This document shows positions 1 to 21,584 of a stretch of 64,000 nt of DNA, piece after piece. The notes under the pieces are model-generated. The model saw only the letters and a list, made by a program, of their open reading frames with translations. It was not told the DNA's origin and searched no databases. This stretch comes from Periplaneta americana (lineage: Eukaryota; Arthropoda; Insecta; Blattodea; Blattidae): positions 128,007,914 through 128,071,913 of the forward strand of contig NC_091130.1 of the NCBI RefSeq assembly GCF_040183065.1, read 5' to 3'. How positions within the stretch are numbered: position 1 is the first letter of the stretch; each line of letters starts with the position of its first letter. The translations under genes and the position numbers were made by a program.

Positions 1-664
1 CTCTAACACTCTATATGCATTTCTGGATTCGCCCATACGTGCTACATGTCCTGCCCATCTCAAACGTCTGCATTTTATGTTCCTAATTATGTCAGGTGAA
101 GAATACAATGTGTGCAGCTCTGCGTTGTGTAACTTTCTCCATTCTCCTGTAACTTCATCCCTCTTAGCCCCAAATATTTTCCTAAGAACCTTATTCTCAA
201 ATACCCTTAATCTCTGTTCCGCTCTCAAAGTGAGAGTCCAAGTTTCACAACCATAAAGAACAACCGGTAATATAACTGTTTTATAAATTCTAACTTTCAG
301 ATTTTTTGACAGAAGACTAGATGACAAAAGCTTCTCAGCCGAATAATAACACGCATTTCCCATATTTATTCTGCGTTTAATTTCCACCCGAGTGTCATTT
401 ATATTTGTTACTGTTGCTCCAAGATATTTGAATTTTTCCACCTCTTCGAAAGATAAATCTCCAATTTTTATAGTTCCATTTCGTACAATATTCTGGTCAC
501 GAGACATAATCATATACTTAGTCTTTTCGGGATTTACTTCCAACCCTATCGCTTTACTTGCTTCAACTAGAATTTCCGCGTTTTCCCTAATCGTTTGTGG
601 ATTTTTCCCCTAGCATATTCATGTCATCCGCATAGACAAGAAGCTGATGTAACCCATTCAACTA
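1..664 (-). mobile_element. LINE family A, fragment cut by the window start
   Basis: Minus-strand remnant of the non-LTR retrotransposon family that recurs through the window. It covers the segment from the YAD/NMLG region of the reverse transcriptase through the fingers-and-thumb extension and distal C-terminal part, in several broken frames. The same DNA is closely matched at 1950-2790 and 27790-28570. It breaks off at about 664, which looks like 5' truncation, and continues past base 1. It is non-functional. Confidence 0.85.
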
Positions 665-3685: not shown

Positions 3686-4013
3686 ATGCGATTTCATTGT
3701 AATGACGAGGAGCAAACACAACTCCACTATTCAAGCAGTTACTCCACATTTACGGCTTGTAGGGTAGTGCCAGTTGGAATTCGGATGGAGGGAGGACCAA
3801 GGTCAAACATATCTCTGGTAGGAGGCCTTATCAGGTGGGAAAAACAATCAGTATTAAAATCAATATTAAGTATGAAAAGTTTTGTTCAGTTAGCTTTTAT
3901 AGTGGCCGAGATATAAATAAAATGAATTTCACTAAATTTTTGCAAGTCAGTGGTGTACCTCCCCCCTTTAAGTTGCTCCTATCAGCCATAATTTAAAGAT
4001 AAAATACTATGTT

Positions 4014-6725: not shown

Positions 6726-6962
6726 CGACAAGTTAACAAGTAAATGAAGATAAATATCAAAGGTCCTTCAATAACTGTCTATATTTTAAACCAAATGCAT
6801 AATACAAAAGATTACATTAGGTTACACACATAAAACACCATGTGACTAGCGCTTTCGCTATTAAGATAGCATCTTCAGGTCTGGTTTGCGTATTATTAAG
6901 CTTTTCACATAAAGACATAGATGGAAATGTAACATAATAATATTGGACAATATCTGTAAAAT

Positions 6963-19435: not shown

Positions 19436-19447
19436 AATTATAAGGGT

Positions 19448-19555
19448 ATAGAATAACTCTTCTCGGGTTCTCAGCCAGGTGAGTTGGAGATTAGCTTCCA
19501 AGCTTTCGACGGCTAGCTCTGCCATCTTCTTCAGGGATGAAGCCTCAAATCATAC
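19448..19555 (-). ncRNA. 108-bp insertion with a hammerhead-ribozyme-like core (Penelope-type)
   Basis: The segment is bounded by the 12-bp direct repeat AATTATAAGGGT (19436-19447 and 19556-19567). Minus strand: CTGAAGA (19534-19528), stem II ATGGC...GCCGT closing a 7-base loop, then CGAAA (19508-19504). A short stem III (GCT/AGC) ends in TA. These match the conserved CUGANGA, stem II, GAAA, stem III and UH layout of hammerhead RNAs. Minimal hammerheads are known in the terminal repeats of Penelope-like retroelements. Stem I is not convincing, so activity of this copy is doubtful. Confidence 0.6.
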
Positions 19556-19567
19556 AATTATAAGGGT

Positions 19568-21190
19568 GTTGGATACGTAAAAAAACGGTAACCTCAATGC
19601 TGAAGACATTGCCAACAGCAAAGAAATGAAAACTCTAATAGTGATCTCTGAATTTCATTTCTGTCTTCTTTTGTGCAAAAGAATCTTGGGACGCCTACAT
19701 CCGGCTGATGCTGTCTTGCAGAACCGAAAAACTGGTTTAAGCAACGCTATAAAACATGTACAGTCTGTTAAGTCGTCATTGATTCTGTGAGAAAAGATTC
19801 AGGATTTGAATCAATTCTGAAACAAAGTCGAGAACTTCTGTTCTCCCAAAAGGATCTGATGATGGTGGGTCATGAAGGCATATAAAAAATGTGGAAAAGA
19901 TATCAGAGCAATTGCCAACTCACAGTGAAATGTGCAGTTTCAACACTCAACAGTTAAGGGTGTGTTTTATGTAATTTTAGATGTCGCCATGTCCCAGGTG
20001 AATGAACGATTTTCTGATAGCGAAGCATAGGCGGCACTGGCCCCGCAAACTTGCCTCAACTCTTTTTATTCTCTTGACGTTAGAAAATATTGAATTCAAA
20101 GGACCTTTTTTGCTTTTGTTTGGGATCAAGTTTTTGTGCTTAAAATGATGAATTAATGTCTTCAGATCATGTGTCTGGACTATAATAGGCCTGTTTATTT
20201 TTAATTTCTGAATGTATAAGGATTTCTATACCTCATTTGAGGAATGGAAGAAGTGTAATGTTTTTTTTGTAACAGCCTGTACTCATGTGTTAGAAGTCTA
20301 CAGGCCGCTACTTGAAGAAATATGAATAACATACTGCACAACAATGCAGAAAAAAGAAAAGTGATCCCGGTATAATATGCAAACTTAAAGACGAGATTAA
20401 ATAAAATAATTAGAGTTTATATTTCATATGATATCTTCAGGGAGGTAAACTTCATATAAAAAGGTTTCTGTTAGCACTGTTACGTAGTTTTATTGATGTA
20501 TGAATGTGTTTCTGTACGAGAGAGAAAAAGGGGAGATTGTTTTAAGTTATGCTCTATTATAATTTGTAGCAGACCTACAGTTCAAGTGCTACACAAGTCG
20601 GTCCGAAAACATCGCGGATGTGGATGTAACACTGTAAGAAACACGCTCTCGAAAATATAGTAATCATATTCCGATATACTGTACCAGGGTCAAACTATGA
20701 GATAAATGATGTCGAAAATCGAAAAATCGAAGGAGATTTGGGAGGAAAATTTAAAAGGTACGCAAAACGCGTCCTTGCAAGGGGTTGGGGGCTGTACAAA
20801 ACTAAATATGTGAGCTCCAAGCCTGTTGGCCACTAGTCTCACTCCGGGTTACGCTGCTCCCCTGAAGGAGCTCTAGAAAATTTTGAAGGAGAAGCCGAAA
20901 TTGGACGTAACCTCTTAGGTACCACATACGCGAGGGGGGCTGAGATTGATCAATTGATCACGGAACGGGGCGAGGAGGAGTTGGCTGGTGTTTGCCGTTA
21001 GGATGGCAAGACGCCGTCATCTGTTGTTCGATGACAAAGCATGTGAAGGCCGTCGGAAGAAGCGCCGTGAAATCTAATCTGCAATTTGAGAGGTCCCTGT
21101 CCTTTCAATTTGCGACTTATTGAGTGACCTCGTATATTTAATAGACTATTAATATTATCTGAACTAGGGCATACATGGTTTATAATAAAG
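19568..21190. other. no recognised feature
   Basis: A long stretch without domains or clear repeat structure. The G/C-richer part at 20740-21120 has no coding frame. Confidence 0.45.
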
Positions 21191-21211
21191 GTGGAATATA
21201 TATGGGGAAGG

Positions 21212-21584
21212 GCATATAGGTCCGTGGCCCATTTCTTATAGGGCTCATCCCGACATTTGTCTTACGCCTGAGGAAAACCACGGAATACCTTAGGCGAGAT
21301 GAGTTGTCTCATGTATAGGAGACTAGCCAATTTGGCTATTATGTATGAGGTGATTGTTATCATGAGCCTTGTTAAATCGTCTCAATTTTGAGATAAGCCA
21401 TTTGGCTATATGATGGCTCAATTACGAAGAGGGGGGAGAGATGTAATTAGTTAATTAATTTAAAGTAATTAGGGAGATTAATGGGGATATGAGTGCAGGT
21501 CCGTGGCCCATTTCTTTTAGGGCTCATCCGGACATTTGTCTTAGCGCCTTAGGAAAACCACGGAAAAACCTTAGACAGAATGAT
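21212..21584 (+). repeat. pair of about 90-bp direct repeats, 275 bp apart
   Basis: GGTCCGTGGCCCATTTCTTW TAGGGCTCATCC plus GACATTTGTCTTA and AGGAAAACCACGGAA recur at 21218-21300 and 21493-21580 with about 90 percent identity. They could be a local duplication or two partial copies of an interspersed repeat. Confidence 0.7.

What the first reader, a model, noticed from the sequence alone, without database searches (positions are those of the whole stretch)
19448..19555. 108-bp insertion with a hammerhead-ribozyme-like core and 12-bp target duplication
On the minus strand the insert has CTGAAGA, a 5-bp stem II, CGAAA and a tiny stem III followed by TA, in the order of type I hammerheads. Such minimal ribozymes are established in Penelope-like element terminal repeats. 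Here the mobile unit seems to be little more than the ribozyme itself, bounded by AATTATAAGGGT on both sides. That would be a very small retro-inserted ribozyme RNA. Stem I is weak, so it may need dimers or may be dead.
Basis: partly seen in the sequence, partly recalled or inferred. Interest (0 to 1): 0.75.

Follow-up and report, generated by a model that had tools for sequence, protein, structure and literature searches.

The report
Tiny Penelope retroelement double-primed insertion
The 108-base insert is a very short stub of a Penelope-type jumping gene, copied from the start of its RNA where a hammerhead ribozyme overlaps the start codon, and sister copies in the same genome suggest that insertions are primed at two different fixed points of the RNA, one for each end.

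Summary
The insert and its 12-bp target duplication are real. The minus strand holds a complete minimal type I hammerhead core, but the mobile thing is not a free-standing ribozyme. The insert is the 5' leader plus the first 26 codons (26 of 26 residues identical) of a Penelope-like element (PLE) abundant in the same 3.23-Gb genome; one full copy with an intact 817-codon frame was read. The insert is two arms joined head to head: an antisense arm from ORF position +78/79 to the presumed transcription start (-17), and 13-14 nt of sense sequence ending at +108. Nearly all two-ended insertions examined (29 of 31, 6 of 6, 19 of 20) have one outer end near +77 and the other near +108/109, in opposite orientation, mostly with 9-16 bp duplications. 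These points match the two internal reverse-transcription start sites and 'tail' of a lizard PLE studied in vitro. Exact-string counts give about 1,265 ends of one kind and 1,312 of the other. No examined arm ends at the predicted ribozyme cut. Best explanation: both target strands prime reverse transcription near the 5' end of PLE RNA, run off at its end ('strong stop'), and are joined by microhomology. The stub lacks the promoter. The end rule is the new part.

The parts
19436..19447 (.). left copy of the 12-bp target site duplication AATTATAAGGGT
19448..19542 (-). antisense arm: PLE leader and ORF start from about +78/79 (outer end, start site 1) down to -17 (presumed transcription start); 100% identical to the common family sequence
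19543..19555 (+). sense arm: last 13-14 nt of the 'tail', CCTCAAATCATAC, ending at +108 (start site 2; the A at 19556 could be +109 and is also the first base of the duplication); joined to the other arm through an AAG microhomology
   Evidence: microhomology read from the sequence
19556..19567 (.). right copy of the 12-bp target site duplication
19497..19537 (-). minimal type I hammerhead: stem I UCC (19537-19535)/GGA (19499-19497), CUGAAGA 19534-19528, stem II GAUGGC 19526-19521/GCCGUC 19513-19508, GAAA 19507-19504, predicted cut between 19500 and 19499
19448..19525 (-). first 26 codons of the PLE ORF (MAELAVESLEANLQLTWLRTREELFY), 100% identical to L047
   Evidence: tblastn E 3.9e-10

Best explanation
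The insert is a non-autonomous, 5'-leader-only insertion of a Penelope-like retrotransposon. The PLE enzyme cuts both target strands about 10-12 bp apart. Each of the two DNA 3' ends primes reverse transcription inside the RNA near the start of the ORF, one near +77 and the other near +109, and both copies run toward the RNA 5' end (strong stop at -17, about 30 nt after a TATATA box) or stop earlier. The two cDNAs then join head to head by microhomology (GAAG/CTTC, or AAG in the window) and gap filling makes the duplication. When the template is an ordinary single mRNA only about 125 nt can be copied per arm, so many insertions are stubs; read-through RNA from tandem copies gives long or full elements. 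The hammerhead lies over the start codon and is in the insert because that part of the RNA is copied; it does not make the ends. Shown: sequence identity with a full PLE, the two-end rule in the samples examined, duplications, head-to-head order, pile-up at -17. Inferred: the enzymatic steps, use of two RNA molecules, -17 being the cap site.
For: (1) L047 is a full copy: duplication, antisense +77..+19, upstream ORF end, pLTR, intact frame of 817 codons from the ATG, pLTR to +108, duplication. The frame matches RVT_1, E 3.2e-13, and shares 24/44 identity with the N-terminus of the lizard element PAc. (2) Two-end rule. First sample, 39 rows: 28 with both outer ends found by BLAST; 26 of 28 have one end at +75..81 and the other at +107/108; 0 of 28 have both ends of one class; exceptions L009 (+79/+98) and L036 (+58/+108). 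Adding WIN, L025 and L043, whose short arm was read by string, 29 of 31. Large head-to-head PLE pairs: both ends readable in 6 of 10, 6 of 6 mixed. First 100 listed leader places (all on C1, of 2,465): 22 of 24 head-to-head pairs have exactly one arm running past +77, 0 both, 2 neither; 20 of the 24 fetched, 19 of 20 mixed, including the two 'neither' cases; exception L103 (+77/+98). (3) Whole genome, exact strings: 2,465 up to +77, 1,200 run on to +88; 1,338 up to +109, 26 run on into the ORF, so roughly 1,265 and 1,312 ends. (4) Close neighbours (within 5 kb) are head to head in 12 of 13 pairs among the 150 scored endonuclease hits and 24 of 26 leader pairs; none is tail to tail. (5) The second start site aligns with PAc's mapped start region. 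(6) Duplication match of 10-16 nt in 29 of 31 and 9-15 nt in 19 of 20.
Against: The first sample was chosen by similarity to the insert; the C1 list and the exact-string counts are less selected but miss diverged copies and pairs more than 5 kb apart. 8 of the 39 first-sample rows show only one readable end (L010, L020, L021, L022, L027, L029, L038, L039) and none of these has a duplication match longer than 7 nt. In the exact-string subtraction mutated copies count as stops and copies with a change inside the string are missed. Arms of one insertion differ about as much (87/3690, 2.36%) as arms of different insertions (2.75%), which fits two templates but also plain later mutation. At the most polymorphic position (next to a CpG, near -13) 5 of 14 insertions have discordant arms, but L030 and L097 are junction artefacts, leaving L014, L017 and L107; at +16 4 of 38 and at +33 2 of 44 are discordant. 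In six long pairs the arms differ by 1.3 on average against 1.8 between insertions, and two pairs share private variants (L048/L049, L054/L055), which points to one source. Two inner ends (+28, +29, of 42 aligned pieces) lie within 3 nt of the predicted ribozyme cut. The in vitro lizard study saw no strand difference in start-site use. Start site 2 is not perfectly fixed: +107 in five copies, and no A at +109 in L051, L054, L067 and L091.
Confidence: 0.82

Rival explanations
1. Self-priming: one cDNA (or an antisense RNA) folds back and is copied into the second arm, as proposed in 2013 for rotifer Penelope elements to explain head-to-head palindromes.
For: Head-to-head order and palindromic junctions such as L019 and L026; the proposal is in PMC3846280 (passages); unequal inner ends such as L088 (-8, +7) and L091 (+11, +31) are also what a fold-back would give; some arm pairs share private variants.
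Against: A fold-back copy of a +77 arm cannot contain +78..+109, and a copy of a +109 arm would have to stop near +77 each time; yet one of each is the rule. In L098 both arms reach -17/-18 with only about 3 nt between them, which leaves little room for a fold-back loop. Arms differ at polymorphic positions in L014 and L017 (with a CpG caveat).
Confidence: 0.1
2. A free-standing, retrozyme-like ribozyme RNA that is cut out by the hammerhead and spreads on its own.
For: Complete hammerhead core; 2,465 exact leader strings in the genome; two loci with direct tandem units of 157-161 bp that carry the core.
Against: Outer ends are near +77 and +109 and inner ends pile up at -17, none at the cut (+26/27); the stubs lack the promoter-like stretch; the window's join occurs 3 times genome-wide, with different alleles in the third; the unit is part of a full PLE.
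Confidence: 0.04
3. Solo pLTR left behind by recombination or deletion of a larger PLE.
For: Solo pLTRs of that origin are proposed in PMC3846280 (passages).
Against: Duplications flank most stubs read; outer ends obey the two-end rule; inner ends pile up at -17 (12 of 42 aligned pieces at -17/-18), which recombination would not give.
Confidence: 0.03

Closest known systems
Penelope/Poseidon-type Penelope-like elements with GIY-YIG endonuclease; PAc of Anolis carolinensis (PMC11167929, parts 1-3 of 4 of the text read)
   Same: Hammerhead overlapping the ORF start; internal RT start about 110 nt into the ORF; two start sites with the 30-40 nt 'tail' between them; both target strands cut and extended; local sequence around the start site alignable. 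A+T is 73% in the 20 nt after +108 here (genome background not measured), AT-rich targets there.
   Different: Genomic copies here show that the two starts are divided between the two ends of one insertion; 18 of 24 head-to-head pairs on C1 are short, arm spacing 264 bp or less; predicted cut after ORF nt 26 here, 29 in PAc by the same descriptor.
Adineta vaga Penelope elements (PMC3846280, passages)
   Same: Two direct pLTRs plus an inverted pLTR, a 31-bp tail on one of the inverted pLTRs, head-to-head order most frequent, 8-10 bp duplications in the passages seen.
   Different: Low copy number there and a self-priming explanation; here more than a thousand leader arms allow the ends to be counted.
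Animal retrozymes with type I hammerheads (PMC7229834, abstract and passages)
   Same: Type I hammerhead core, short non-autonomous retro-copies.
   Different: Retrozymes are tandem repeats expressed as circles of about 170-400 nt; here most units read are single or head to head and are bounded by RT start sites.

Membership tests
Penelope-like element (source of the insert) | telomerase-like reverse transcriptase in a single ORF | tested here: met
   L047 frame: RVT_1 E 3.2e-13; in the PDB the best matches are group II intron-like RTs (E 1.3e-05), telomerase RT is weaker (E 0.011); so RT is met, telomerase-likeness only weakly
Penelope-like element (source of the insert) | C-terminal GIY-YIG endonuclease | tested here: inconclusive
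   GVYRIPCECGKCYIGQTGR and downstream R, H and E read by eye (motif recalled); Pfam gives no hit
Penelope-like element (source of the insert) | pLTRs with an inverted copy, ~30-bp tail, target duplication | tested here: met
Penelope-like element (the insert itself) | carries RT and endonuclease | tested here: not met
   the insert holds only 26 codons; it is a fragment, presumably mobilised in trans
Hammerhead ribozyme, type I minimal | CUGANGA / GAAA core, UH at the cut, stems I-III | tested here: met
   (descriptor loosened); the same descriptor accepts PAc and two further sequences of this genome with different stem sequences
Hammerhead ribozyme, type I minimal | Rfam hammerhead model match | tested here: not met
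   the whole-genome RF00163 search was uninformative (72 of 394,108 candidates scored, nothing rang in 14 controls)
Hammerhead ribozyme, type I minimal | self-cleavage | not testable with these tools
   needs RNA
Animal retrozyme | tandem repeat units with ends or circle junction at the ribozyme cut | tested here: not met
   tandem units seen in L109 and L110 have their junction at +139..141/-18, not at the cut

The most novel reading that the evidence does not exclude
PLE integration is obligatorily asymmetric: an enzyme dimer holds two RNA 5' ends, one protomer starts at +77 and the other at +109, one per target strand, so that every insertion is a head-to-head pair of two separately templated cDNAs. 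Stubs made this way can, by repeated copying of one unit, turn into 157-161 bp hammerhead tandem arrays (L109, L110), a possible birthplace of animal retrozymes.
Probability: 0.4. Interest if true: 0.75.

Novelty: new variant of a known kind. Interest (0 to 1): 0.55.

Why it matters
How Penelope-like elements insert is not settled, and their inverted, tailed copies have been an oddity. Here more than a thousand near-identical leader arms, most of those read being very short insertions, give a readable record: two start sites, one per end, strong stop at the presumed RNA 5' end, microhomology joining. That makes the dual-primed model directly testable in vitro with existing PLE protein, and it argues that the hammerhead is not used to make the inserted ends.

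Tried and rejected
MFE folding neither supports nor excludes the ribozyme; in the short leader RNA an alternative hairpin CUUCA/UGAAG hides part of the core. Amplified mini-element: rejected. Start site 1 showing more microhomology than start site 2: an impression that vanished when the RNA sequence past +108 was included (means 1.67 and 1.67 nt over 30 copies); no chance control was run for the size of this overlap. 'A at +109 always': true in 28 of 28 hits of the first sample but not in L051, L054, L067 and L091. A plasmid search with the endonuclease fragment found nothing. Pfam did not recognise the endonuclease. Allele discordance as proof of two templates: weakened by a CpG position and two artefact rows.

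Print: in the three papers opened (PMC11167929 parts 1-3 of 4; PMC7229834 abstract and passages; PMC3846280 passages) I did not see the one-start-site-per-end rule or the stub class stated. The other papers were seen as listings only. Three further PLE papers were looked up and are not held, so earlier description cannot be excluded.

Full report
What is there. The window insert lies at 19448-19555, flanked by AATTATAAGGGT on both sides. It is one of many near-identical copies in its own genome (68 matches listed, 40 of 992 first-look candidates scored). The genome has 3.23 Gb in 91 contigs.

Anatomy of the copies. Reading 38 loci plus the window shows that the copies are not simple. Most have an antisense arm and a sense arm joined head to head. 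Positions are counted from the A of the PLE start codon. The outer end of one arm lies at +75..+81, that of the other at +107/+108, and the inner ends pile up at -17. In the window the antisense arm is complete (+78/79 to -17), while the sense arm is only 13-14 nt long (CCTCAAATCATAC). L025 has the same inner join with a different duplication and shares a tail variant with the window. An exact search for that join finds 3 places in the genome, the third with other alleles, so it is best read as a recurrent AAG microhomology join and not an amplified unit.

The parent element. L022, L024, L010 and L014 carry more of the source: the end of a long ORF and a promoter-like stretch upstream of -17. 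A search with that ORF end gave 11,029 first-look candidates, of which 150 were scored and all 150 matched. L047 is a full copy: duplication GAGCTAAATTGT, antisense arm +77..+19, the end of an upstream ORF, pLTR, an intact frame (828 codons stop to stop, 817 from the ATG), pLTR to +108, duplication. The protein matches RVT_1 at E 3.2e-13; its best PDB matches are group II intron-like RTs, with telomerase RT weaker. A GIY-YIG motif is visible but Pfam does not call it. The window insert encodes its first 26 residues without a difference. In the 5' part of L047 the sequence runs on past +108 (CATAC then ATTGTTCACC), so +108/109 is an internal point of the RNA.

Match to a studied mechanism. In the lizard element PAc (PMC11167929, parts 1-3 of 4 read), reverse transcription starts inside the RNA at two nearby sites, the main one 111-118 nt into the ORF; the stretch between them is the 'tail'; both target strands are cut and extended; the hammerhead overlaps the start codon and its inactivation does not affect insertion in vitro. 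Here +103..+109 (TCATACA) aligns with PAc 111-118 (ACAACACA) inside a short alignable stretch (score 30, best of 200 shuffles 28), and the N-termini are homologous (24/44). In 28 of 28 hits of the first sample that reach +108 the next base is A, as in the RNA; L051, L054, L067 and L091 lack it and five copies end at +107. So the start is usually +109, with a spread of a few nt.

The two-end rule. First sample: 28 of 39 rows have both outer ends; 26 of 28 are mixed, none has two ends of one class; with three short-armed copies read by string, 29 of 31. The other 8 rows show one end only, with no duplication match longer than 7 nt. Long PLE pairs: 6 of 10 have both ends readable, 6 of 6 mixed. 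Of 40 windows taken downstream of PLE ORFs (20 of them are those pair windows), 15 end at +107..113, 10 at +75..81, one each at +74 and +84, 11 break near -17 or -28, one runs off, one has no match. The least selected sample is the capped list, its first 100 of 2,465 places, all on C1: 26 neighbour pairs within 5 kb, 24 head to head and 2 in tandem; in 22 of 24 exactly one arm runs past +77, in none both. I fetched 20 of the 24; 19 are mixed, one is +77/+98, and the two apparent 'neither' pairs are mixed with mutated tails. Genome-wide, 2,465 exact strings reach +77 and 1,200 go on to +88, while 1,338 reach +109 and 26 go on into the ORF. So about 1,265 ends of one kind stand against 1,312 of the other. 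Mutated copies count as stops and copies with a change inside a string are missed, so both figures are approximate.

Duplications and joins. Duplication matches are 10-16 nt in 29 of 31 and 9-15 nt in 19 of 20, including some ambiguous bases at each end. Inner ends, by aligned piece: 12 of 42 at -17/-18, 13 at -12 to -4 (the partner side of the GAAG/CTTC microhomology), 9 between +7 and +43, and 8 upstream of -18 (read-through templates, or pieces of a broken alignment). None lies at +26/27; +28 and +29 occur once each. The first sample has none at +26/27 either. In the C1 list 18 of 24 pairs have arms no more than 264 bp apart, so among pairs within 5 kb stubs are the common product.

Mechanism. 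If both DNA ends prime inside the RNA near its 5' end, an ordinary mRNA can give only about 125 nt per arm, like retroviral strong-stop DNA. Long copies need read-through RNA from tandem elements, and L047 does begin with the end of an upstream ORF. Self-priming, proposed in 2013 (PMC3846280, passages), does not explain why the second arm has the other end. Two separate templates are likely but not proven: arms of one insertion differ as much as arms of different insertions (2.36% and 2.75%) and L014, L017 and L107 have different alleles near -13, but that position is next to a CpG, L030 and L097 had to be dropped as junction artefacts, most insertions are concordant at +16 (34 of 38) and +33 (42 of 44), and some long pairs share private variants.

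The ribozyme. The core, 6-bp stem II and 3-bp stem I are intact in the window copy. The descriptor accepts PAc, the family, a second motif in the window (6878, minus) and a third in L024, with different stem sequences, so pairing is kept while sequence changes in four motifs. That supports a real hammerhead in the parent. It does not show that the stub cleaves, or is even transcribed: it lacks the promoter-like stretch.

Verdict. Observation confirmed; interpretation partly supported. The insert itself is an ordinary product of this PLE; what the family shows about PLE insertion is new as far as I could search.

Noticed in passing
window 6844-6881, minus strand: A second hammerhead-like motif (GAC CTGAAGA T GCTAT..ATAGC GAAA GCGCTA GTC) with an ATG at a similar place, possibly a remnant of another PLE family.
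   Followed up: partly
L053, L056, L065, L069, L071, L081, L084, L086 (281-base windows); L021; window 20715-21583: 11 of 40 PLE windows break at -17/-18 or -25..-28, and in 8 of these 11 the sequence that follows matches one non-LTR retrotransposon region (L021), at different points: a LINE that seems to insert at TCCCACATCA just upstream of the PLE start. The window holds a related 3' end, followed by ACATCA.
   Followed up: partly
L108, L109, L110 (C16:128980250, C17:131037750, C5:139142050): Short tandem arrays with PLE leader units (173, 161 and 157 bp apart). In L109 and L110 direct units run from about -18 to +139..141 and carry the hammerhead core; L109 is flanked by GGTTAAGGG. The break at +139..141 recurs in all three loci and is unexplained (L110 is cut off at one end).
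   Followed up: partly
L024, around 3758-3805, plus strand: A third hammerhead-like motif (GTAT CTGATGA T GTTGG..CCAAC GAAA ACGTTT ATAC) beside a PLE end.
   Followed up: no
L009 5026-5502 and L018 4734-5108: Direct repeats of a stub together with about 45-55 bp of flanking DNA, as if a second insertion or a local duplication followed the first.
   Followed up: no
window 19542/19543 and L025: Two insertions with different duplications share the same inner join and the same tail variant (CAAATC for CAAGTC); a third copy with the join lacks the variant.
   Followed up: partly
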